Shown here: positions 1 through 30,009 of the stretch, piece by piece
Position numbering within the stretch: the first letter of the stretch is position 1
Layout of the letters: the number at the start of each line of letters is the position of its first letter
Assembly (NCBI GenBank): GCA_022827405.1
Contig: JAJDTA010000017.1
Coordinates: 1 to 35,082 of the forward strand
Direction: 5' to 3'
Source of the DNA: Acidimicrobiia bacterium
GTDB lineage: Bacteria > Actinomycetota > Acidimicrobiia > Acidimicrobiales > Bin134
Length of the DNA: 35,082 nt
Notes under the pieces: model-generated
Told to the model about the DNA's origin: nothing
Seen by the model: only the letters and a program-made list of their open reading frames with translations
Databases searched by the model: none
Position numbers and translations under genes: made by a program

Positions 1-174
1 GTGGGCGACCACTCGGTGGAGCTAATGCACGACTGCGTGCAGATGCACGGCGGCATCGGCGTCACCTACGAGCACGACCTGCACCTGTATCTGCGGCGGG
101 CCACCGTGAACCGGGGGTTGTTCGGAACGCCGGGCGACTACCGGGTAGGTCTGTCGAAGATGATGGGGTACTAG
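1..174 (+). CDS. acyl-CoA dehydrogenase, C-terminal end (partial)
   Basis: The first 57 codons visible are the end of an acyl-CoA dehydrogenase; the gene begins before the window. The translation contains MHGGIGVTYEHDLHLYLRRA, which matches the C-terminal helical domain of this family, where the Q-x-HGGxG-T-E-H pattern contributes to FAD and substrate contacts. The reading frame ends with TAG at 172-174. A second acyl-CoA dehydrogenase follows 75 bases downstream on the same strand, so the two probably form one operon and may act as a pair, as seen in several actinobacterial steroid and fatty-acid degradation loci. The substrate cannot be judged from this fragment. The last 27 bases of the gene, including the stop codon, recur just before the next gene. 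Confidence 0.85.
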   Translation: MGDHSVELMHDCVQMHGGIGVTYEHDLHLYLRRATVNRGLFGTPGDYRVGLSKMMGY

Positions 175-7127: not shown

Positions 7128-7217
7128 GGAAGGTTGCCAGAGCGGACGAATGGGGCGGCCTCGAAAGCCGTTGTGGCCTCCGGGTCACCATGGGTTCGAA
7201 TCCCATACCTTCCGCCA
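7128..7217 (+). tRNA. tRNA-Ser (anticodon CGA)
   Basis: The acceptor arms GGAAGGT (7128-7134) and ACCTTCC (7207-7213) pair perfectly, followed by discriminator G and an encoded CCA (7215-7217). The anticodon stem GCGGC/GCCGT encloses the loop CTCGAAA, placing anticodon CGA at 7162-7164, which reads UCG serine codons. A long variable arm (GTGGCC TCCG GGTCAC) and the T-loop GGTTCGAATCC confirm a class II tRNA. It marks the boundary between housekeeping-like genes and the catabolic block. Confidence 0.97.
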
Positions 7218-7347: not shown

Positions 7348-7890
7348 ATGAGCTTTACCGGACCTGTTCGCCGAATCATCACTGGCCACGACGACGGCGG
7401 CACTGCGATTATCGTCGCCGACGGCCCTACAAGCCGGATCTTTGACGCGCTTGGCGAGGAGGGCTTGGTTTTCCAGGAGATTTGGCACACCACCGAGACG
7501 CCTGCGTTGATCGACCGCGACCGACGCGAGGCCGAAGAGCCCGGACTGGTGCTCGCGCCGCCGACAAACGGGGTCCGCATTCGGGTGTTGGACATTCCGC
7601 CCGAAGCCGAGGGGGCGGACATGGACGCCGTGTTCGAGAACATCGGCGCGACCGATGCCAAGCTCGAATCCGACCGCCACCGGTCCTTCCACCGCACCGA
7701 GACCATCGATTTCGGAATCGTATTATCCGGCGAGGTCGTGCTGTTGATGGACGAGGGCGAGGCGACCGTCTACCCAGGCGACATCGTCGTACAACGCGGC
7801 ACCAACCACGGCTGGATGAACAGAACCGAACAACCGTGCCGAGTCGCCTTCATTCTGATAGACGGCCTATACACCGATGGGCTCGGCTAG
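7348..7890 (+). CDS. cupin-domain protein
   Basis: A 180-residue protein with one C-terminal cupin barrel. About residues 105-170 show the two cupin motifs in relaxed form: HRTETIDFGIVLSGEVVLLMDEGE (motif 1, with His, Glu and Gly positions) and VYPGDIVVQRGTNHGWMN (motif 2, with His). Histidines and the glutamate could bind a metal. The N-terminal 80 residues resemble the N-terminal part of other small cupin proteins found in aromatic catabolic clusters (TSRIFDALGEEGLVFQEIWHT). The ATG at 7348 follows AAGAGAGG. It is convergent to an FAH-family gene. The enzyme activity, if any, is unknown. A mutilated relative of this gene, conserving the GADMxAVFENIGATDAK core, lies near 22.9 kb. Confidence 0.8.
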   Translation: MSFTGPVRRIITGHDDGGTAIIVADGPTSRIFDALGEEGLVFQEIWHTTETPALIDRDRREAEEPGLVLAPPTNGVRIRVLDIPPEAEGADMDAVFENIGATDAKLESDRHRSFHRTETIDFGIVLSGEVVLLMDEGEATVYPGDIVVQRGTNHGWMNRTEQPCRVAFILIDGLYTDGLG

Positions 7891-18652: not shown

Positions 18653-19777
18653 TCAGGCCGGCTCGCATAGCGCGCCGAGCGTTCGCATGAATAGTCCAGG
18701 GATGTCTGCGTCGGGGTCATCGTCGATCATCCACTGCCCCACTTGTACCGACGCATCCACCACGGTCTTGGCCCGGTCGTAACGGCGATCCATGAATGCG
18801 TCGAGCGCGGACGCGAGATCACTGTGGGCCAGCAAACTCTCGCCTAGGACTAACGCGTCCTCCATGGCCTGTGCGGCACCCTGCGCAATCGTCGGCGGGC
18901 AGGTATGGGCAGCATCGCCGATCAGGACTACGCGGCCGCGCCACCAGGGCGGTTCGAGGATCATTTTCTCGAACCAGGTGTAGTGGACGGTCGCTGGGTC
19001 GATCATCAGCTCGCGAATGTCCTCCCACGGTCCTTGGTAGGCCCCGGAAAGCTCGCGCATATAGGCGAGCTGGTCTTCTGGCGGCATCTCTTCGCGATCT
19101 TGCATCGGTTCCACGATGTAGGCGTACAGGGAATCCTCACCAGTTGGGCAGTAGCCGGCGATGTAGGCGGGACCCGCGTAACAGAGGTCGGTGCGCTCTA
19201 CCGAGTCTGGTCGGCTCGTGAAGACTCGGAAGATTCCCATACCGGTGGGCTCGGGCCTGGTAGTGATCCCGATCATGTCCCGCACCGTCGACTTGACACC
19301 GTCGGCTCCGATTACAAGGTCGTAGCGGCGGTTAGTCCCGTCGCTGAATGTCACATCAACCCCCGCGCCTTCGTCATCGAAGTTGGCTACCGTCATACCG
19401 AAACTCAGCGTTGCGCCGGCTGCCGACGCGGTGTCGACGAGAATCTCAGCTAGGTGCCTCCGTTCCATTCCGAGGGTCGCCGGGAGATCCGGGCCACCAG
19501 TCTTGATGTCATCGAGTTCCGCCACAAGGGTGCCGTCGGGTATGCGGATCCCGGTGGTGTCGAATGCGTAGCCGGCGTCTGATGCTGCTTCCCAGGCACC
19601 GATCTCTCGGAGCACTCGCAATGCGTTGCCTTGGATGGTGATACCTGAGCCAAGTGCGGTCACGTCGTTCTGGATTTCCACTATGTCTACATCGACGCCG
19701 TCTCTGGCTAGGACTGCGGCGACGACACATCCTGCGCTGCCCGCGCCCACCACTAGGGCCGTTTCAACTGCTGCCAT
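18653..19777 (-). CDS. FAD-dependent aromatic monooxygenase
   Basis: A 374-residue class A flavoprotein hydroxylase. The N-terminal dinucleotide fold is VVGAGSAGCVVA (about 9-20), followed by the DG motif DLVIGADGVKSTVR near 155 and the GD motif GRVVLIGDAAHTCPPTIAQG near 285. Family members such as 6-hydroxynicotinate 3-monooxygenase, MhpA and salicylate hydroxylase add a hydroxyl to an activated aromatic ring with NAD(P)H. The ATG at 19777 is preceded by AGGGGAAAG, and the first gene of the nine-gene operon therefore starts here. The start region, with the first 10 codons, is duplicated at 24.1 kb. It diverges from a LysR-type gene, originally the intact copy now 4.4 kb away, which is the likely regulator. 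Confidence 0.93.
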   Translation of the reverse strand: MAAVETALVVGAGSAGCVVAAVLARDGVDVDIVEIQNDVTALGSGITIQGNALRVLREIGAWEAASDAGYAFDTTGIRIPDGTLVAELDDIKTGGPDLPATLGMERRHLAEILVDTASAAGATLSFGMTVANFDDEGAGVDVTFSDGTNRRYDLVIGADGVKSTVRDMIGITTRPEPTGMGIFRVFTSRPDSVERTDLCYAGPAYIAGYCPTGEDSLYAYIVEPMQDREEMPPEDQLAYMRELSGAYQGPWEDIRELMIDPATVHYTWFEKMILEPPWWRGRVVLIGDAAHTCPPTIAQGAAQAMEDALVLGESLLAHSDLASALDAFMDRRYDRAKTVVDASVQVGQWMIDDDPDADIPGLFMRTLGALCEPA

Positions 19778-19947
19778 TCGACTTTCCCCTGCAAATGCGA
19801 AAACTGACTTGTCTTTGCTTGGCGAACAGTACTCAAGTGGCATTCATCAGCGAAGGTGAAACTGATAATACGTGCCATTGGTTTGAGTTATAGGGGAGGA
19901 TTTCGGTGAGAACCGACGGAGGCAATGAGCCGGCCACCGATCTCAAC
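19748..19947. repeat. left copy of a 200-bp direct repeat flanking the sulfatase/Rieske cassette
   Basis: This stretch matches 24134-24333 over 200 aligned bases with six substitutions and no gaps. It contains the first 10 codons of the FAD monooxygenase (minus strand), the whole divergent promoter with a LysR-type operator, the GTG start and the first 14 codons of a LysR gene (plus strand). It is intact toward the monooxygenase and broken on the LysR side. Confidence 0.95.
19846..19866. promoter_or_regulatory. LysR-type operator, left copy
   Basis: ATCAG at 19846-19850 and CTGAT at 19862-19866 are perfect inverted arms separated by 11 bases, the geometry of LysR-family recognition sites. 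It lies about midway between the monooxygenase start and the LysR start and is conserved in the second repeat. It probably controls the nine-gene operon; binding is inferred. Confidence 0.65.
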
Positions 19948-19970
19948 CTACGGACAGCTCTTGCTGGGCC
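19906..19970 (+). pseudogene. LysR regulator remnant with internal deletion
   Basis: The GTG start, ribosome binding site (GGGGAGG) and first 14 codons match the intact LysR gene at 24292, but after position 19947 the sequence jumps to a 23-base match (19948-19970) to 24636-24658, which encodes YGQLLLG in the middle of the intact gene. Relative to that gene, 302 bases are missing, which also shifts the frame. After 19970 no further similarity to LysR is visible, and 19971-20066 shows no recognisable gene. The remnant lacks the DNA-binding helix-turn-helix and cannot be functional. Confidence 0.85.
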
Positions 19971-20066
19971 AGGCGCTGGCGCCAGACCCGCCGGTCCTCC
20001 GAAATGCTCCACCGGTGGAGATCGGCCAGACCGCCTCCCAGGGCGAGACGATCCTCGTCAGACCCT

Positions 20067-21236
20067 TCAGACACTGAGTTCCAGCATGCCCTCGCCGATG
20101 ATCAGGCGCCCGGAGTAGCCGTCCTGAGCGGCGGCGAGCACATCCGCCGGGGTCGTCGACGGCACGATGTGGGACAACACCAGGTTGCGAACGCCGGCCG
20201 GCTCGGCGACGTCTCGACCAACCTGCTCGACGGTGGTGTGCGCAGTCAGCAGGTGTTCGCGCACTGCCGGACCGACATCGGGCGGGAGAATCGACGCGAG
20301 CCGGTCGGCAAAGGCCGGATCGATGACCTCGTGCACCAAGTAGTCCGCCCCATGCGCGAGGTCGATCAGATTCTCCGAAACCGTCGTGTCACCGGAGACC
20401 ACGATCGACCCGTCAGGAGTGTCGAACCGGAAGCCGTATGCAGGAGCCGTCGGGTGGTGATCGACGAGCGTCGCCGTCACGCGCACGTCGCCGTCCTCCC
20501 AAACCTCGATTGGGCCCGACAACCGGGGCGGGATGCCAGCCGGATCGACCGTCCAGTGTGGCGAGTGGTCGATGTCGTGGACATCGAACCAGTCGTCGGG
20601 AATCTTGAAGTTGCTGTCTCGCGCCCGATCGTTGAAGTCTGCCGCGAATGCCTTTCGCAGATACCTGGTCATGCCTTCGATCCCCGGCGTCGGGTCGTCC
20701 GGCTCGATCACCGAGGGTTCGGGCCGGTGCGGCGGGAACACTCGGGGGAGCGTGTCTCGGCGTCCAGGACCGAACACCTGAACTGGGTCGGTCGCTTTGT
20801 TCGCCATCATGGTCCCCGTGGCGTAGAGGGCCGGCCAGTCCACGCAATGATCACTGTGCATGTGCGTGAAGAACAGTGCCCGGAGCGACAGGAAGGTGTT
20901 GCTGGAATCGCCGCCGTTCTCACGCTGACCGAGTGCTGCCAAACGGTTGAGCGAGCCGACACCGAGATCGACGACATACATGCGGTCCGCATGGATGATT
21001 GCGGTGCAGACACCGACGCGGCTCGGATTGCTGATGACAGGCCCACCGGCCACACCGACCGTCACTAAACGGGTTCGTCCGCCGGCGCGGTCGCTCGGCG
21101 CCATCGCTTCGAACCCCGGGGCTATGCGTGGCGACGCTGAGGCGGCCGCAGCAGCATCCTCCGCAAGCGCTGCCAGCACCTCTCCCCGTTCGCGCTCCGG
21201 CATGCTGTTCACGGCCCGACTCACCACATCGCACAT
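20067..21236 (-). CDS. MBL-fold metallo-hydrolase (RNase Z-like)
   Basis: A 389-residue metallo-beta-lactamase-fold hydrolase. The zinc motif THMHSDHCVDW (His 125, His 127, Asp 129, His 130) is complete, a bridging Asp is in VVSGDTTVSENL, further ligands are in LVHEVIDPAF and VLSHIVPS. The arrangement and the LVTVGVAGGP start of the fold resemble the RNase Z/arylsulfatase-like branch rather than beta-lactamases, so it could be a phosphodiesterase, lactonase or alkyl-/arylsulfatase. An N-terminal helical stretch of about 45 residues precedes the fold. I use ATG 21236; a GTG at 21290 would extend the protein into sulfatase-derived sequence. It is downstream of a sulfatase in the same direction, within the repeat-bounded cassette. 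Confidence 0.85.
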   Translation of the reverse strand: MCDVVSRAVNSMPERERGEVLAALAEDAAAAASASPRIAPGFEAMAPSDRAGGRTRLVTVGVAGGPVISNPSRVGVCTAIIHADRMYVVDLGVGSLNRLAALGQRENGGDSSNTFLSLRALFFTHMHSDHCVDWPALYATGTMMANKATDPVQVFGPGRRDTLPRVFPPHRPEPSVIEPDDPTPGIEGMTRYLRKAFAADFNDRARDSNFKIPDDWFDVHDIDHSPHWTVDPAGIPPRLSGPIEVWEDGDVRVTATLVDHHPTAPAYGFRFDTPDGSIVVSGDTTVSENLIDLAHGADYLVHEVIDPAFADRLASILPPDVGPAVREHLLTAHTTVEQVGRDVAEPAGVRNLVLSHIVPSTTPADVLAAAQDGYSGRLIIGEGMLELSV

Positions 21237-21270
21237 CGTCTTCGCATTTCGTCGTGACTGTTCCGCGCCT

Positions 21271-21360
21271 TCAGACCGAGCCCATGGCACCCAAGCACCC
21301 GATCGACTGCCCAGCGTGGTCGTCGGTCAAGACGACGACGATGTTCGGGCGCCGAGTCAT
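21271..21360 (-). pseudogene. N-terminal stub of a second sulfatase
   Basis: From an ATG that overlaps the stop of the intact sulfatase (ATGA at 21357-21360), 29 codons encode MTRRPNIVVVLTDDHAG followed by QSIGCLGAMGSV and TGA. This is the unmistakable start of a sulfatase: the RPNIV strand and the DD pair that bind the metal. The intact neighbour has ADQ at this place, so the stub comes from a different sulfatase. The rest of the gene, including the Cys-x-Pro-x-Arg active site, is missing. Confidence 0.8.
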
Positions 21361-22826
21361 CCTGCCTCCATCGACCGGGAGCCCGCCGGCTGAGGCAGGT
21401 CGACCTGCGGAAATCGGGGATTGTCATCCCACGGCATCACGTCGGCGGTCGCGACCATCCACCGCAACAGCTCGGCGCTCAGCGTCGCTTCGAGCTCGGC
21501 GTGCTCGGGCTGGCCTGCGAGATTGTGCAGCTCCTGAGGGTCGGCGCGCCGGTCATAGAGCTCTGGCGGCTCGTACAGGCGCCACACATAGGTCCACTCC
21601 GTCGAGCGGATGGCCACCGCCTTGCCGACCGTCTCGGGTCGTTCGTGTTGCGCCTTGCCTTTGAGGTCGTACGGAAAGCCCGGGTTCTCCAGCTGGCCGT
21701 GTTCTTCGACGAGGAAGCCGCCCTCGGTGAACGCGTACTCCCGGTGCCCGACGTCCGGATCTCGAAGCACCGGAACGAGGCTGCGCCCGAAATGGGTGTA
21801 GTCGGGCTCGAAACCAGCGAGATCGTAGAGCGTGGGGACAATGTCGATCAGCTCGACCATCGCGTCGACAGCGCGTCCTTCGGCGATGCCGGGTCCGGCC
21901 ATCACCAGCGGATCTCGGGTGAGGCAGTCGTGCATGCCGGAGGGCCACTTCTCGATCAGGTCGTAGTCCCCCAGGTACTCGCCGTGGTCGCTGAAGAAGA
22001 CCACCACGGTGCTCTCGAGGTCGTCGCCGGCCGCTGCGAGTATGCGGCCGAACTGTGAGTCGAGCCGGGAGACCATGCCGTGATAGACCGCCGCGATCTC
22101 GCGCCACTCCTCGTCGGAGAGGCGGCCGAGCCCGTAGGTGTCGCGAACGTTCTGCATGAACGCCGGTTCGTGACCCGACTGCACATGCCCCGCCCGCTGC
22201 GGCAGCGCGGCGCGGTCGTGCATCGAGTACCAAGGCTCAGTCGCCGCGAACGGGCAGTGCGGGAAGATCATGGGCACGTAGAGCAGCCACGGCCGGTCAT
22301 GAGGTCGCTCGGCCAGCCACGCCTCGGCGGTTCGGGTGCACGCCTCGTCGAAATCGTGGTCGTGCTCGTCGTCGACCTTGCCGATGTAGAACGCTCTCGA
22401 CATCGGCCAGTCGGGATGCATCTGCCCCTTGGGGGCCATCATTGGGGTGTCCGGCGGCGTTGCCCAGCCGTATTCGTGACAGCTCTCCTCGGTGGCGCCA
22501 GGTGCCCAGGTGTCGCCACGCTCACCGACATGGACGACGTGGTAGCCACGCTGCTTGAACGACTTCAAGACATTCGGGTCGTCGGGGCGCAACAGATGGG
22601 TGAGGCTGCGGTGCCCCCGCGTGTGCGGATACCAACCGGTCAGAAACGACGCCCGGCTCGGCGAACACACGGGATGCTGGGTGAAGCAATTCGTGAAGCG
22701 GGTCCCTCGCTCTGCCAGGGCATCGATGTTCGGCGTACTGGCGAAGTCGGCACCGAACGCGCCGACTGCGTCGGCTCGTAGCTGGTCGGCCACGATCATC
22801 AACACGTTCGGCCGGTTGTTTGTCAT
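21357..22826 (-). CDS. sulfatase, formylglycine-dependent type
   Basis: A 489-residue type I sulfatase that hydrolyses sulfate esters. NRPNVLMIVADQLRADAVG opens the alkaline-phosphatase-like fold. The active-site signature is CSPSR with Cys about 54, the residue a formylglycine-generating enzyme must convert. FSDHGEYLGDY near 280 gives the usual metal ligands, and LYDRRADPQELHNLA near 445 the C-terminal domain signature. No signal peptide is visible, so it acts in the cytoplasm. The first aspartate pair is AD rather than DD, a common variation. AAGGGGCGGG precedes the ATG. No formylglycine-generating enzyme gene is in the window. In this neighbourhood a sulfated aromatic or sugar substrate is plausible but not shown. 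Confidence 0.92.
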   Translation of the reverse strand: MTNNRPNVLMIVADQLRADAVGAFGADFASTPNIDALAERGTRFTNCFTQHPVCSPSRASFLTGWYPHTRGHRSLTHLLRPDDPNVLKSFKQRGYHVVHVGERGDTWAPGATEESCHEYGWATPPDTPMMAPKGQMHPDWPMSRAFYIGKVDDEHDHDFDEACTRTAEAWLAERPHDRPWLLYVPMIFPHCPFAATEPWYSMHDRAALPQRAGHVQSGHEPAFMQNVRDTYGLGRLSDEEWREIAAVYHGMVSRLDSQFGRILAAAGDDLESTVVVFFSDHGEYLGDYDLIEKWPSGMHDCLTRDPLVMAGPGIAEGRAVDAMVELIDIVPTLYDLAGFEPDYTHFGRSLVPVLRDPDVGHREYAFTEGGFLVEEHGQLENPGFPYDLKGKAQHERPETVGKAVAIRSTEWTYVWRLYEPPELYDRRADPQELHNLAGQPEHAELEATLSAELLRWMVATADVMPWDDNPRFPQVDLPQPAGSRSMEAG

Positions 22827-22834
22827 GAGCCCGC

Positions 22835-22945
22835 CCCTTCGATGGAAGCCAGCAGGTCATCAGCTTCACCCCTGAAGCCGAGGGCGCGGACATGAACGCC
22901 GTCTTCGAGAACATCGGCGCCACCGACGCCAAGCTCGAGCACCGT
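22835..22945 (+). pseudogene. internal fragment of a cupin gene
   Basis: The plus strand encodes a stretch whose GADMNAVFENIGATDAKLE matches residues of the intact cupin protein at 7.3-7.9 kb (GADMDAVFENIGATDAKLE). About 65 bases (22874-22938) are identical except for five substitutions. Similarity fades upstream of 22870 (QQVISFTPEAEG) and stops after about 22940, shortly before the Rieske gene's stop. Both the start and the cupin barrel are missing, so this is a decayed fragment lying between two minus-strand genes. Confidence 0.8.
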
Positions 22946-22950
22946 GCGCG

Positions 22951-24000
22951 TCACTTCGCTGTGGATGGTTCGGCTTCGAGCTGGCGTCCGATGACCCGTC
23001 GAGCTGCGAGCGCACCGGAATCGATCTTAAGGCTGACCTCGGTCACCACGTCGCTTTGCCCGAGCACCCGTTCCACGTGCGCTAGTGCTTCCACGTCCTG
23101 GAGAACCACCGTGCGCTGCATGTCGGCCATCGCCTCGTCGACCCCCTCGTCGTCAACCGAGAAGTTGCGACACAACGCCCAGAAGTCGAGGGTGGTCCCT
23201 GCCGTGGACGGAGTGATGGCGTACAAGATCTTCAGATGAGCGGCATCGGGGTCGCTGCCGTCGAGGGCCGGGGCGACTCCCGCCGGTGCGATCCGAGAGT
23301 GCAGGACGTACTGGCAAATCGGGCGGTATTCGATGTCCTGCCAGCGATCGATCGGCGACGTCATTCCCGTGGTCTCGGAGTAGAACTTGGGACACTCGAC
23401 CGCCGCCATGCGGCGGCTGACCCTGACGGTCCCGGTCGCGTCATCGACCTCGGTCTCGATCGGCGTCGCTGCGACTTCGCGGGTTCCGATGTAGCCGGCA
23501 TGGAGGAAGGTCTCGTGCGACAGATCGAGCAAGTTGTCGACCAACAGCCCGTAGCGAGCGGCGATCGGTTCCATACCGTGGAGTACTGCCCAGCCAGGCT
23601 CGCTGAGCCATGGAAGGACCGGCGGCGCTGCCACTCCTGGGTGCGTGGGATCCCCGATCCACACCCAGATCCACGGCCCGGTCTGACAAAGGGGGTACGA
23701 GGCAACTGAGGCGCTCGAGGGAATTCTCGACTGGTTCGGGGCCCAGACGCACGTGCCGGACGACGAGAACGTCAGTCCGTGGTAGCCGCATTGCAGCTGC
23801 CCATCGACGACCTGGCCGAGTGACAGGGGGTAATTCCGATGAGGGCATCGGTCGACGAGCGCCGCCAGGGTTCCCTCGGCGTCCCGGAACAAAACGATGT
23901 TCTCGCCGCACACGGTGCGTGCCAGCGGGCCGTCACCGAGCTCGTCGACGGAGGCGATGACGAACCACTGGTTGGTCGGGAGCTCGGTGGGCATGGTCAT
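22951..24000 (-). CDS. Rieske non-heme iron oxygenase, vanillate O-demethylase-like
   Basis: A 349-residue terminal oxygenase. The Rieske [2Fe-2S] ligands are present in DRCPHRNYPLSLG and LQCGYHGLTF (Cys 52, His 54, Cys 71, His 74). The catalytic iron site is in NLLDLSHETFLHAG (His 162 and 167). Spacing and the LDLSHETFLH motif match the vanillate monooxygenase (VanA)/dicamba monooxygenase group, which removes O-methyl groups from aromatics using electrons from a separate reductase. The ATG at 24000 is preceded by GAGGACAACG; an extension upstream adds a few non-conserved residues. No reductase gene is adjacent. It lies in the repeat-bounded cassette, next to a truncated frame of unknown origin. 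Confidence 0.92.
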   Translation of the reverse strand: MTMPTELPTNQWFVIASVDELGDGPLARTVCGENIVLFRDAEGTLAALVDRCPHRNYPLSLGQVVDGQLQCGYHGLTFSSSGTCVWAPNQSRIPSSASVASYPLCQTGPWIWVWIGDPTHPGVAAPPVLPWLSEPGWAVLHGMEPIAARYGLLVDNLLDLSHETFLHAGYIGTREVAATPIETEVDDATGTVRVSRRMAAVECPKFYSETTGMTSPIDRWQDIEYRPICQYVLHSRIAPAGVAPALDGSDPDAAHLKILYAITPSTAGTTLDFWALCRNFSVDDEGVDEAMADMQRTVVLQDVEALAHVERVLGQSDVVTEVSLKIDSGALAARRVIGRQLEAEPSTAK

Positions 24001-24040
24001 CGTTGTCCTCGATTCGCGAAACATCGGTCGTTCGAAGTGA

Positions 24041-24163
24041 TCACAGGGCGGCGAGGAATGATTCGAGTGCTGTCATGTACCGCTCGTGGCCGCCGAGTGC
24101 GTCGTGGATGCCGTGCGCCTGGCCGGTAGCGGTCACCACTAGGGCCGGTTCAACTGCTGCCAT
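24041..24163 (-). pseudogene. hybrid frame: monooxygenase start joined to foreign tail
   Basis: The minus strand from ATG 24163 encodes MAAVEPALVV, the first 10 residues of the FAD monooxygenase, then switches at 24134 to TATGQAHGIHDALGG and HERYMTALESFLAAL before a stop. The tail could be the end of a gene that once preceded the Rieske oxygenase gene (its GxxHG...FL shape is reminiscent of an alpha/beta hydrolase end, weak evidence). The fused frame is unlikely to make a functional protein. Confidence 0.7.
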
Positions 24164-24333
24164 TCGACTTTCCCCTGCAAATGCGGAAACTGACTTGTCT
24201 TTGCTTGGCGAACAGTACTCAAGTGGCATACATCAGCGAAGGTGAAACTGATAATATGTGCCATTGGTTTGAGCTATAGGGGAGGATTTCGGTGAGAACC
24301 GACGAAGGCAATGAGCCGGCCACCGATCTCAAC
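24134..24333. repeat. right copy of the 200-bp direct repeat
   Basis: This copy matches 19748-19947 with six substitutions. Here the LysR side is intact and continues into the functional regulator, while the monooxygenase side is cut after 10 codons. The two copies are therefore complementary: each is whole toward a different gene. Confidence 0.95.
24232..24252. promoter_or_regulatory. LysR-type operator, right copy
   Basis: The inverted arms ATCAG (24232-24236) and CTGAT (24248-24252) with an 11-base spacer are identical to those in the left repeat. Here the site lies 40 bases before the LysR GTG and probably mediates autoregulation. All substitutions between the two repeats fall outside the arms and spacer. 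Confidence 0.65.
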
Positions 24334-25266
24334 GTCCTTGACCTCAATCTTCTCATCGCTTTGGACGCTCTGTTGCGTGAGCAGAGCGTGACCCGGGCCG
24401 CCGGCCGACTTCTGCGCAGCCAGCCGGCTTTGTCCGGCTCACTTCAGCGGCTGCGCCGCCAGTTCGATGACGAGCTGCTTGTCCGGGTGGGAAATCGATA
24501 CGAGTTAACCCCGTTGGCCGCTCAGCTCAAGACTCGCGTCGCGGTCCTGCTCGCCGACGTCGGACGTCTTTACGAGACGCGTTCAACTTTTGACAGTGCC
24601 CGATCTACCCGGGAGTTCACAATTGCGGTGTCCGACTACGGACAGCTCTTGCTGGGCCGTGCAATCGCGGCTGAGCTGGAGTCAGCAGCCCCTCACGCTC
24701 GTCTCCGGTTCCGACCTTTGAACGACGAATTGATTGCCACCGCCGCAACGGCGGTGAGGAATGTGGATGGCTTTGTTCTTCCTGTGGGCCTCATCGAGGG
24801 CATTCCACACTTCAAGGCCTATGAGGATCGTTGGGTTCTTTTGGTAGACATCGACAACCCAAAGGTCGGAGAACAGGTCACACTTGACGAACTAAGCGAA
24901 TTGGAATGGGTAACGGCCTTTCACCGCGAGGACTCGCCGGTACCTCCAGTTCGCCAACTTCAATTGCTTGGTGTGGACATGAGGGTCAGAGTCGTAGTGG
25001 AGGGGTTCGTGCCCTTGCCGTTGTACGTTCAGGGAACCGATTCCATTGCCGTAATCCAAGAGGGCTTGGCCCGACAGATCGCCCCGGCTGAGCGGTTCCG
25101 ATTCCTCGAGTGTCCATTCGATGTCGTTCCACTCGCTGAGTCATTCTGGTGGCACCCGTCACTTCAGAACGATCCCGGTCACGCGTGGTTCCGAGAATTG
25201 ATAGGTCAGGCTGGCCAACGCATAGAGAAAAAACTGCTCGAAATCAACTCCTCTTCCAATAACTAG
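24292..25266 (+). CDS. LysR-family transcriptional regulator
   Basis: A 324-residue regulator. The winged helix-turn-helix is at about 15-75: LDLNLLIALDALLREQSVT, AAGRLLRSQPALSGSLQRLR and ELLVRVGNRYELTP, the standard LysR pattern. The rest forms the effector-binding domain with REFTIAVSDYGQLLLG near 107 and LPLYVQGTDSIAVIQEGLA near 245, close to NodD/aromatic-responsive members by appearance. The start is GTG at 24292 with GGGGAGG seven bases upstream. It was probably once directly divergent from the FAD monooxygenase gene, now 4.4 kb away, and likely senses an aromatic inducer of that operon. Base composition looks less GC-rich than its neighbours. It may also influence the downstream transport operon. 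Confidence 0.93.
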   Translation: MRTDEGNEPATDLNVLDLNLLIALDALLREQSVTRAAGRLLRSQPALSGSLQRLRRQFDDELLVRVGNRYELTPLAAQLKTRVAVLLADVGRLYETRSTFDSARSTREFTIAVSDYGQLLLGRAIAAELESAAPHARLRFRPLNDELIATAATAVRNVDGFVLPVGLIEGIPHFKAYEDRWVLLVDIDNPKVGEQVTLDELSELEWVTAFHREDSPVPPVRQLQLLGVDMRVRVVVEGFVPLPLYVQGTDSIAVIQEGLARQIAPAERFRFLECPFDVVPLAESFWWHPSLQNDPGHAWFRELIGQAGQRIEKKLLEINSSSNN

Positions 25267-27130: not shown

Positions 27131-28072
27131 ATGCCGTTGTACATAGCAAAACGGCTTGCTATCGGCGTCGGAACCATCTGGGCAGCCTTCACGCTTACAT
27201 TCCTCCTCGTTCACAGTACCGACAACAGCCCCGGTGCCGTTCGACTCGGGATGGGGGCCACCCCCGAAGAGGTCGAGGTCGAAAACGAGCGCCTTGGCTG
27301 GAATCGACCCCTCCTGACTCAATACGCAGACGACCTCGGAAAGATGGTGCGGCTCGATTTCGGTCAGTCCCTCATCAACCGCGGAGATGTCAGGGACCAG
27401 CTCTCAGATCGGCTGCCGGTCACAGCTTCGATCTCGGTTCTGGCCACATTGCTCGCGGGCATCGTTGGCACCGCACTTGGGGTAGTAGCCGCAGTACGCG
27501 GCCGCGGTACGGCCAAGGCTGTCAACGCGTTTTCTGGTTTCTCGCTCTCAATTCCCTCGTTCTGGCTTGGTGTGGTGCTCGTCTACTTCTTCGCGATTCG
27601 GCTCGACCTTCTGCCAGCAACGGGATACAGCCGGTTCAGCGAGGGCGTCGGGAGTTGGCTACAGAGCCTCGCCCTCCCGGTTATCACTCTCGCGATCGGC
27701 GGTGCTGCCGTGGTGGCCCGAATGGCCGCGTCCGGAATGCGAGAGGCCTTGGCACGCGAGTACATAACAACCCTGCGGGCTATTGGCACACCAGAGTGGA
27801 GAATTCGCTACATACATGCCCTGCGGGCGGCGAGTCTGCCCGTGGTCGGCGCGCTTGGCGTCCAGTTCATCGTGCTTTTCGGTGGGTCGGTCATCATCGA
27901 AAACCTCTTCGCCCTTCCGGGGATCGGTCAAGCTGCGTTGTTTGGGGCAACAGGCAACGACTTCCCCATCCTCATCGGCGTGGTGGTCATGTCCACGGCA
28001 GTGGTGGTGATTACTAACCTCGTCCTAGACCTTCTCACCGCCGTACTCGATCCGAAGATGCGGACCAGATGA
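27131..28072 (+). CDS. ABC transporter permease, DppB type
   Basis: A 313-residue integral membrane permease of the peptide/nickel family. MPLYIAKRLAIGVGTIWAAF begins the first membrane helix, followed by a periplasmic region (VENERLGWNRPLLTQYADDL and FGQSLINRG) typical of DppB. Further helices are visible at about 105-130, 140-160, 180-200, 235-260 and 280-300. The ATPase-contacting EAA loop is REALAREYITTLRAIGTPEWRIR near 205-227. The ATG at 27131 agrees with the family start; an upstream extension would cover the intergenic hairpin flank. Its stop overlaps the next start (ATGA). Together with the fused protein downstream it forms the membrane channel of the importer. Confidence 0.93.
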   Translation: MPLYIAKRLAIGVGTIWAAFTLTFLLVHSTDNSPGAVRLGMGATPEEVEVENERLGWNRPLLTQYADDLGKMVRLDFGQSLINRGDVRDQLSDRLPVTASISVLATLLAGIVGTALGVVAAVRGRGTAKAVNAFSGFSLSIPSFWLGVVLVYFFAIRLDLLPATGYSRFSEGVGSWLQSLALPVITLAIGGAAVVARMAASGMREALAREYITTLRAIGTPEWRIRYIHALRAASLPVVGALGVQFIVLFGGSVIIENLFALPGIGQAALFGATGNDFPILIGVVVMSTAVVVITNLVLDLLTAVLDPKMRTR

Positions 28073-30009
28073 GCAGCATTCGGCAAGCCAAACATCAGCG
28101 CATTCCGGCGTTCCTGCGATCGTGGGGAGGAGTGTTCGGGGCCGGATGGCTGATCTTTATGTTTCTCGCCTCGATCACTGCTCGTTGGTGGCGCCCTTAC
28201 GACGTCGCGGAGCAGGACCTGATCGCACGGCTGCAGGGGCCCTCAAGCGAGTATTGGCTCGGTACCGATGCTGTGGGCCGCGACCTGTTCAGCCGAGTCT
28301 TCACCGCCGGCGCCTTACCCCTTCAGGCGTCGGCGGTGATGGTTGTCGTCGCTTTCGGCATCGGTCTGCCGCTTATCCTCATCGCGGCGGAAAGAGGCGG
28401 ACGCGTCGAAGAGGCCATCGGTCGCTTCGCTGAGACAATCATGTCGCTGCCATCCACGGTGATCCTGTTGGCGGCAATCGGGGCTATCGGCAATCGCATC
28501 TATCCCGTCATGATGATCTTCGGCCTGTTGGTCTCGGCAGCGCTGTACCGGATACTGATCGGGGTTGCGAAGTCCAGCCGACAACATCTGTACATTGATG
28601 CTGCCCGAGTCGACGGCATGGGCTCCATTCGGGTCAACCTTGCCCATGTTCTGCCCAGCATGGCCCGCCCGATCGCCGTTCAGGCAGCCATTGTCTACGC
28701 GATCGGACTGCTGATCATCAATGGTCTGGCGTTTCTCGGGTTCGGGCCCGGAGAACCTCAGCCCAGCTGGGGATTCATGATCAAAGACGCCTCCGACAAC
28801 ATTTTCAACTCCCCGTGGATGATGGTTCCTCCCGGCGTCGCCCTCTCGCTCACGGTCATGGCGGCGAATGCGCTGGCCGATGCGCTGGCCGGACCCCTCG
28901 GCATCCCGGAGTACACCCCCCCTAAGCGTCGCCGAACTATCTCCGCTTCCCCAGCACAGCAGTCTGAGGGCACAGACAACCTCGCCCTCGCGGTCCGCGA
29001 TTTGTCGGTGGTTGTCGAGGGGGGACCGACCCTTGTAAACGGGATATCCTTCGATCTCCGACAAGGTGAAGTTATGGGCCTGGTCGGTGAGTCTGGCTGC
29101 GGCAAGACGATGACCGCCAGATCGCTCCTCGGCTTGCTTCCCGCGGGCGTGGAAGTGAGTAGCGGTTCCATCATCTGGCAGGGAAGGCAGATCGCCGGTC
29201 TGCCCGAACGGGATGCGATCAAGATCCGCGGGCGGGAGATCGCCATGATCTCCCAGGAACCCATGGTCGCGCTGGATCCGCTGTTCTCCGTAAAGTCGCA
29301 ACTCACCCGTCCGCTTCGGCGGTTTCGCGGCGTGGGGAGACGCGAGGCCCGGCGAATCGCCCTTGAGCTTCTCCGACAGGTCGGCATAGTCGATGCCGAA
29401 CGGGTGCTCAGGTGCTACCCGCATCAACTCTCGGGCGGCATGGCCCAGCGGGTCGCGATCGCGCTGGCGCTCACCGGCTCGCCGAAGCTCCTGATTGCCG
29501 ATGAGCCGACCACCGCCCTGGATGTGACTGTGCAGGCCGAGATTCTGAGCCTATTGCGGGCACTGGTTGCTGAAACGGGCATGTCAGTGTTGCTGGTCTC
29601 CCACGACCTCGGTGTGGTGGCCGATATCTGCGACCGGATCGCGGTTATGTACTCCGGACAAGTCGTAGAGGCCGGAACGGTGGCAGAAGTGCTCGAAGAC
29701 CCGTATCACCCCTACACGATGGCGCTGCTCGGCGCGAACCCACATGTCGCCGACGATGCCCCTGAGCCCGAGCGGCTGGCTGCGATCTCCGGCAGCGTGC
29801 CGCCTCCGGGCAATTGGCCGGAGGGGTGCCGCTTTGCGGACCGCTGCCAGTTCGCGGCAAGCGAATGCAGCGTCGCCTTCGAGCCCGAGCCCGCCCACGT
29901 AGACGGCATGTCGCTGTGCATTCGAACTGGAGAACTCCGACGAACTGGCGCGCAGTGGGCGCCTGAGCACCGCGGCGCCGAACTGGCTGTGGAATCAAAG
30001 GCCCCATGA
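28069..30009 (+). CDS. fused ABC permease (DppC type) and ATPase (DppD type)
   Basis: A 646-residue single frame combining two usually separate importer components. Residues 1-285 are a DppC-type permease: an N-terminal helix, HWLGTD-like YWLGTDAVGRDLFSRV near 62, membrane helices, and the EAA loop YIDAARVDGMGSIRVNLAHVLP near 178. A short linker (about 285-305, PPKRRRTISAS) leads to a DppD-type ATPase with Walker A GESGCGKT, Q-loop MISQEPMVALDP, signature LSGGMAQR, Walker B LLIADEPTTALD, the H-loop SHDLG and a C-terminal Cys-containing oligopeptide-transporter extension (GCRFADRCQFA). No frameshift or stop is visible at the junction. Both genes around it overlap by ATGA. Such permease-ATPase fusions occur in some actinobacteria and Rhizobiales. 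Confidence 0.93.
   Translation: MSSIRQAKHQRIPAFLRSWGGVFGAGWLIFMFLASITARWWRPYDVAEQDLIARLQGPSSEYWLGTDAVGRDLFSRVFTAGALPLQASAVMVVVAFGIGLPLILIAAERGGRVEEAIGRFAETIMSLPSTVILLAAIGAIGNRIYPVMMIFGLLVSAALYRILIGVAKSSRQHLYIDAARVDGMGSIRVNLAHVLPSMARPIAVQAAIVYAIGLLIINGLAFLGFGPGEPQPSWGFMIKDASDNIFNSPWMMVPPGVALSLTVMAANALADALAGPLGIPEYTPPKRRRTISASPAQQSEGTDNLALAVRDLSVVVEGGPTLVNGISFDLRQGEVMGLVGESGCGKTMTARSLLGLLPAGVEVSSGSIIWQGRQIAGLPERDAIKIRGREIAMISQEPMVALDPLFSVKSQLTRPLRRFRGVGRREARRIALELLRQVGIVDAERVLRCYPHQLSGGMAQRVAIALALTGSPKLLIADEPTTALDVTVQAEILSLLRALVAETGMSVLLVSHDLGVVADICDRIAVMYSGQVVEAGTVAEVLEDPYHPYTMALLGANPHVADDAPEPERLAAISGSVPPPGNWPEGCRFADRCQFAASECSVAFEPEPAHVDGMSLCIRTGELRRTGAQWAPEHRGAELAVESKAP

What the first reader, a model, noticed from the sequence alone, without database searches (positions are those of the whole stretch)
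19748..24333. A 4.2-kb cassette split a monooxygenase/LysR divergon, in the geometry of a single-crossover integration
Two 200-bp direct repeats with six substitutions (19748-19947, 24134-24333) flank MBL hydrolase, sulfatase and Rieske oxygenase genes. The left repeat is joined to the intact monooxygenase and to a broken LysR. The right repeat is joined to the intact LysR and to a monooxygenase cut after 10 codons. This reciprocal pattern is exactly what results when a circular DNA bearing a decayed copy of the divergon recombines once with the intact chromosomal divergon. Tandem duplication followed by decay, or a misassembly of related strains, are alternatives.
Basis: partly seen in the sequence, partly recalled or inferred. 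Interest (0 to 1): 0.78.

Follow-up and report, generated by a model that had tools for sequence, protein, structure and literature searches.

The report
Operon inserted inside a duplicated promoter
In an aromatic-compound degradation gene block of uncultured Acidimicrobiia bacteria, three genes sit between a monooxygenase gene and its neighbouring regulator gene, with a copy of the region those two genes share at each end; the rearrangement is real and seen in five related species, but it looks like ordinary genome rearrangement and no circular DNA could be shown.

Summary
Two direct repeats (19748-19947, 24134-24333; 194 of 200 identical) flank MBL hydrolase, sulfatase and Rieske oxygenase genes. 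The left repeat joins the intact monooxygenase to a LysR remnant; the right joins the intact LysR to a monooxygenase cut after 10 codons. The left LysR also has a 302-bp deletion, then 23 bp more of LysR.

Misassembly is very unlikely: four other same-genus genomes carry the arrangement with the same three fixed differences between repeats. These are probably one event: a block of about 35 kb is mostly 98-99.9% identical among species whose flanks are mostly 88-96% identical.

In 9 of 14 relative loci examined, the monooxygenase and LysR genes are divergent (direct neighbours in three) with no sulfatase or Rieske match, so the split looks derived. In three loci an MBL gene lies downstream of LysR, so part of the cassette may belong to the same cluster.

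The geometry fits a single crossover but equally a duplicative illegitimate insertion. No circle, plasmid, phage or close cassette-free form was found in what I searched. Both operons now start at a copy of the same intergenic region; shared LysR control is inference.

The parts
18653..19777 (-). intact FAD-dependent monooxygenase (MO), 374 aa
   Evidence: Pfam FAD_binding_3 2e-38; NCBIfam PRK06847.1 above its cut-off; 11 synonymous and 8 nonsynonymous changes among five genomes, pN/pS 0.24
19748..19947 (.). left copy of the 200-bp direct repeat (MO codons 1-10, intergenic region, first 42 bp of LysR)
19846..19866 (.). ATCAG-N11-CTGAT inverted repeat in the left intergenic copy, a weak candidate LysR site (5-nt arms, seen by eye, no chance control)
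   Evidence: identical in both copies of all five genomes; not listed by the repeat finder, whose minimum was set to 8
19906..19970 (+). LysR remnant: 42 bp of the start, a 302-bp deletion, 23 bp more
   Evidence: no microhomology at the deletion join
19971..20074 (-). fragment X: possible 5' end of a gene downstream of MBL, unidentified
   Evidence: open frame with GTG at 20074 overlapping the MBL stop; no Pfam, PDB or plasmid match; besides itself one weak hit (24 aa, 46%, E 8e-4) among 346 phylum genomes
20067..21290 (-). MBL-fold hydrolase, 407 aa
   Evidence: Pfam Lactamase_B_2; relatives at 52-62% in four other-genus loci, next to the same divergon in three of them
21357..22826 (-). sulfatase, 489 aa
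   Evidence: Pfam Sulfatase 2.1e-43; 19 synonymous and 13 nonsynonymous changes, pN/pS 0.21
22871..22938 (+). 68-bp scrap of a cupin gene, 91% identical to 7600-7667
   Evidence: cupin at 7348-7887
22951..24000 (-). Rieske oxygenase (VanA_C type); start at 24000 chosen by eye (ORF opens at 24024)
   Evidence: Pfam Rieske and VanA_C; 21 synonymous and 4 nonsynonymous changes, pN/pS 0.06
24041..24163 (-). fused 40-codon ORF: MO codons 1-10 joined in frame to fragment Y (24044-24133, possible 3' end of a gene), then stop
   Evidence: Y unidentified
24134..24333 (.). right copy of the 200-bp direct repeat
24232..24252 (.). the same ATCAG-N11-CTGAT inverted repeat in the right intergenic copy
24292..25266 (+). 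intact LysR-family regulator, 324 aa
   Evidence: Pfam HTH_1 above its cut-off and LysR_substrate just below it; 7 synonymous and 0 nonsynonymous changes in its first 687 bp

Best explanation
Shown: a Rieske-sulfatase-MBL block lies between MO and LysR with a copy of their intergenic region at each end, one with intact MO, the other with intact LysR, in five genomes. Strongly supported: MO and LysR were once a divergent pair, and the split happened once, before a roughly 35-kb catabolic block spread among the five species. Inferred: the event was a duplicative illegitimate insertion. Synthesis ran through MO, the intergenic region and part of LysR, switched into the block, then switched back to MO codon 10 and copied the region again; the 302 bp of LysR were lost then or later. 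Inferred consequence: the MO operon and the inserted operon each start at a copy of the same promoter and may answer to the same LysR protein. My split among mechanisms: template-switch insertion about 0.4, circle integration 0.3, tandem duplication with deletions 0.2, other about 0.1.
For: Repeats and reciprocal truncations. Same 6.7 kb at 99-100% in 4 of 98 other genomes sampled, all same genus (G020 covers 6379 of 6701 bases), with three fixed copy differences. Divergent MO/LysR in 9 of 14 relative loci examined, direct neighbours in 3; no sulfatase or Rieske match in any of the 14 (E limit 1e-2, 1e-25). The breakpoints lie inside MO and LysR, and the one join with both parents visible has zero microhomology. 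Frames kept and change mostly synonymous in Rieske, LysR (first 687 bp), sulfatase and MO.
Against: No donor for the block was found, so its parental joins cannot be read; the template-switch step is chosen only because it needs the fewest joins, and zero microhomology at the one testable join does not favour it. Promoter activity and LysR binding are untested; a sigma-70 consensus scan of 19700-20100 found nothing; the shared inverted repeat has 5-nt arms and may be chance. MBL shows weaker constraint (6 synonymous, 11 nonsynonymous changes, pN/pS 0.63), and G020 has a 1-base insertion in it. Five genomes of one spread block count as one observation.
Confidence: 0.4

Rival explanations
1. Single-crossover integration: a circular DNA carrying the block and a decayed fragment of the divergon recombined with the intact divergon through about 200 bp of homology.
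For: The reciprocal pattern of intact and broken genes is what a single crossover predicts. Three fixed differences between the repeats would be expected if the circle came from a slightly different strain.
Against: No plasmid or phage record with the block and no match in two IMG/VR scans. The circle would already need the same two outer joins, so it adds steps. MBL neighbours this divergon in three other loci.
Confidence: 0.3
2. Tandem duplication of a segment from MO codon 10 through LysR and the block, followed by decay of the first LysR and loss of the second block copy.
For: Explains the direct repeats and the Y/MO join as one duplication join. In three loci of other genera MBL lies downstream of LysR, where the block would have to start.
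Against: Needs several later deletions. No block remnant was found right of LysR in the window's self-comparison. In those three loci MBL is on the strand opposite to the one needed here. One weak match against this: in G005 only, 102 bp of the sulfatase match at 72.5% about 24 kb to the right of LysR, beyond the shared block; I take it for another sulfatase gene but did not check.
Confidence: 0.2
3. Misassembly of related strains.
For: The window is one whole draft contig (35082 bases) in an assembly with 5.34% contamination.
Against: The longest identical run between the repeat copies is 43-70 nt, shorter than the k of 141 suggested by the contig names of those four records; the window's own contig name is not shown. 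Three copy-specific differences are shared by all five.
Confidence: 0.02

Closest known systems
   Same: Dioxygenase-like gene next to or near MO, LysR divergent from MO; in three loci also an MBL relative downstream of LysR
   Different: No sulfatase or Rieske match; one LysR match listed per locus (short remnants were not looked for); in five of the nine loci an FAH-hydrolase-like match lies between MO and LysR
Campbell-type single-crossover integration (from general knowledge)
   Same: Direct repeats with reciprocally truncated genes at the two ends
   Different: No circular donor seen; the scraps at both joins need prior illegitimate joins
Template-switching (MMBIR/FoSTeS-type) duplicative insertion (from general knowledge)
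   Same: Short direct duplication around an insert, short out-of-place scraps at a join
   Different: Microhomology could be tested at one join only and was zero; parents of the other joins unknown

Membership tests
Campbell-type integration | direct repeats flanking the insert with reciprocal intact/truncated genes | tested here: met
Campbell-type integration | circular donor carrying one repeat copy | tested here: inconclusive
   none found in plasmids, phages or IMG/VR; absence from these collections is not proof, and metagenome contigs were not searched
Campbell-type integration | closely related unsplit target site | tested here: inconclusive
   not found: the other 17 of 22 genus genomes have no LysR match and only distant MO matches, 38% identity or less; among 397 order genomes, strong MO matches only in 4 that carry the split form
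Template-switch insertion | microhomology at joins | tested here: inconclusive
   0 nt at the 302-bp deletion join; other joins lack a known parent
Tandem duplication | second copy, or remnant, of the duplicated block beyond the right LysR | tested here: not met
   no self-match of the cassette beyond LysR in the window; one 102-bp, 72.5% sulfatase match far right in G005 only
Integrase-driven genomic island | tRNA target at the boundary | tested here: inconclusive
   tRNA-Ser(CGA) ends at 7217, where the flank alignment of G003 and G012 stops; but G010, which lacks the divergon, matches at 94% across the tRNA to 7330 and has a cupin-scrap match just beyond, so the tRNA edge may not be the block's original edge
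Integrase-driven genomic island | repeat of the tRNA 3' end at the far boundary, and an integrase gene | tested here: inconclusive
   other matches of the tRNA itself in the fetched contigs are weak, E 0.03 or worse; ORFs near the boundaries were listed for G003 but only five of them were scanned

The most novel reading that the evidence does not exclude
Insertion with promoter duplication recruited a new operon (Rieske-sulfatase-MBL) into an existing LysR regulon in one step and was kept by selection because both operons then respond to one inducer. This would be a general route by which catabolic islands build regulons without losing the original promoter.
Probability: 0.25. Interest if true: 0.5.

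Novelty: new member of a known kind. Interest (0 to 1): 0.3.

Why it matters
It is a well-preserved example of how a catabolic gene block grows: genes were inserted beside a regulator while both original neighbours kept the region between them. Because the structure is young (three fixed differences in 200 bp) and shared by five genomes, it could be used to test whether promoter duplication during insertion wires new genes into a regulon.

Tried and rejected
Identity of fragments X and Y: Pfam, PDB sequences, 346 phylum genomes each and plasmids gave no usable relative. Y had two PDB matches at E 0.69 and 1.2, taken as chance. X's single weak hit (24 aa, 46%, E 8e-4 in G670) was looked at only as an ORF list and not pursued. 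So I could not test whether X and Y are two ends of one gene, which would have favoured a circle opened inside that gene.

Cassette elsewhere: MBL (E limit 1e-30, 13 records), sulfatase (1e-60, 5) and Rieske (1e-60, 12) hit plasmids at under 60% identity, with no accession shared between the three lists. Megablast of 6.7 kb in plasmids and distant blastn of about 5 kb in phages found nothing. Sulfatase or Rieske relatives in three order genomes have no second cassette gene within the 15-20 kb fetched. MBL relatives at 37-42% in six other order genomes were not followed up. Of 683 plasmid records with an MO match I examined the three best.

Polymorphism of the two intergenic copies (1 of 200 sites left, 6 of 200 right) was considered as a sign of different constraint; Fisher p = 0.12, so not claimed. 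Paper searches: 'Acidimicrobiia' with 'p16x57bins' gave 0 papers; a six-term search on divergent-promoter duplication, five terms required, gave 0; an Acidimicrobiia island search, four of five terms required, gave 5 listings with abstract beginnings, none opened. I read no paper.

Errors corrected: the Rieske and permease-B frames were wrong (values for them void), redone. In one search the Y query was off-frame and X slightly short, redone. One search dropped the one-base insertion column of G020 in MBL, so its 'no stops' for that row hides a frameshift.
Full report
What is there. The window is the whole of contig C39 (35082 bases) of a 3.77-Mb draft genome in 237 contigs, 95.67% complete and 5.34% contaminated. 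Two 200-bp direct repeats, 19748-19947 and 24134-24333, are 97% identical, E = 1.9e-92. Each holds MO codons 1-10, 128 bp between genes and the first 42 bp of LysR. Left of the first repeat MO continues intact; right of the second LysR continues intact (Pfam). The left LysR then lacks 302 bp, resumes for 23 exact bp and stops. The right MO is cut after 10 codons and fused in frame to 30 further codons. Between the repeats lie Rieske, sulfatase and MBL genes, all on the minus strand.

Not an assembly artefact. A search with the 6.7-kb region in 99 genomes (the window's own and 98 others) found it at 99-100% identity in four others, all of the same genus (G020's contig ends inside LysR, covering 6379 of 6701 bases). 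The repeats differ at 6, 4, 6, 6 and 7 of 200 sites in G000, G003, G005, G020 and G012; three differences are fixed in all five. The longest identical run between the copies is 43, 52, 47, 70 and 70 nt in those genomes, shorter than the 141-mer suggested by the contig names of the four named records.

Probably one event, recently spread. Against G003 and G012, the window left of a tRNA-Ser(CGA) at 7128-7217 aligns at about 91% and from 7321 on at about 99%. In 1-kb steps, full windows left of the tRNA run from 87.6 to 94.5% between the window and the others, except 96.6-96.9% in the last kilobase for G005 and G020; G003 against G012 reaches 96.0% there. Inside the block the steps run from 97.3 to 100%, mostly 98-99.9%. 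On the right, the block ends near position 45.8 kb of the G003 stretch against G012 and 48.9 kb against G005, with 89-94% in most pieces beyond. So about 35 kb is far more alike than its surroundings, and the five copies most likely represent one rearrangement. The left edge is not clean: G010, which lacks the divergon, matches at 94% across the tRNA to 7330 and has a cupin-scrap match a little further on. The other 17 of 22 genus genomes have no LysR match and only distant MO matches. In 397 order genomes strong MO matches occur only in four of the five carriers. In G003 the part of the block beyond the window holds LigB, PrpF, amidohydrolase and another FAD monooxygenase; within the window are an extradiol-dioxygenase-like gene, FAH hydrolases and others: an aromatic catabolic block. 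GC3 of the genes measured right of the tRNA is 0.61-0.84 against 0.85-0.91 in four genes left of it (with Rieske and permease B).

The split looks derived. I examined 14 relative loci: four from the MBL scan (L063-L066), the three best plasmid-collection MO hits of 683 records (L078-L080) and all seven other-genus LysR hits (L081-L087), the last ten. Nine have a strong MO match (50% or more) divergent from LysR. In three (L063 Nocardioides insulae, L065 N. albus, L082) the two are direct neighbours; in L064 about 1 kb separates them; in the other five an FAH-like match lies between. The remaining five have no LysR match (L080), no MO match (L085, L087), neither (L066), or a weaker 36% MO that converges on LysR (L081). 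No sulfatase or Rieske match appeared in any of the 14 (E limit 1e-2, 1e-25). In three of the four MBL loci MBL lies downstream of LysR on LysR's strand; in N. insulae an MFS transporter gene lies between. This is ascertained by MBL: none of the ten loci found by MO or LysR had MBL at E 1e-25.

How it probably arose. Both breakpoints lie inside MO or LysR; on their other sides are open frames X and Y that look like gene fragments but match nothing known. A 68-bp cupin scrap (91% to 7600-7667) lies between sulfatase and Rieske. I infer that the block was assembled by several illegitimate joins. At the only join where both parents are visible, the 302-bp deletion, there is no microhomology. A circle carrying the divergon fragment would need the outer joins already, plus a crossover. 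A template-switching insertion needs the two outer joins only. Tandem duplication needs later deletions, and no block remnant lies right of LysR in the window; in G005 only, 102 bp of the sulfatase match at 72.5% far to the right, beyond the shared block. The data do not decide; I lean to the duplicative illegitimate insertion.

What it may do. The right copy of the intergenic region sits upstream of the Rieske-sulfatase-MBL genes, the left one upstream of MO and the genes after it. Each copy keeps the same ATCAG-N11-CTGAT inverted repeat in all five genomes (10 of 10 copies), but its arms are 5 nt, I found it by eye, made no chance control, and the copies are 96-98% identical anyway, so this is weak. 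Shared control by LysR is inference. Coding frames of MO, sulfatase, Rieske and LysR (its first 687 bp) are open in all five, with synonymous changes in the majority. MBL is looser (6 synonymous, 11 nonsynonymous), and G020 has a one-base insertion in it.

Verdict. A real rearrangement, probably a single inherited event, of a known kind. The circle is possible but not shown.

Noticed in passing
window 7128-7217 and 7321-35082: A roughly 35-kb catabolic block starting next to a tRNA-Ser(CGA) is mostly 98-99.9% identical among five species with mostly 88-96% identical flanks: recent spread between species. All 22 genus genomes match at least part of the tRNA-Ser region; empty sites were not compared.
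   Followed up: partly
window 7600-7667 and 22871-22938: 68-bp fragment of a cupin gene repeated at 91% between sulfatase and Rieske.
   Followed up: partly
G003 C30 and G012 C34, between the tRNA-Ser and the cupin gene: About 4.5 kb with two long ORFs (651 and 605 aa in G003) is present here and absent from the window and G005; not scanned for families.
   Followed up: no
window 20337 equivalent in G020: One-base insertion in the MBL gene of G020, decay or assembly error.
   Followed up: no
window 28069-30009: A peptide-type transporter gene joins permease (OppC_N, BPD_transp_1) and ATPase domains in one 646-aa ORF.
   Followed up: no
window 148-174 and 215-241: Exact 27-bp direct repeat upstream of the acyl-CoA dehydrogenase gene.
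   Followed up: no
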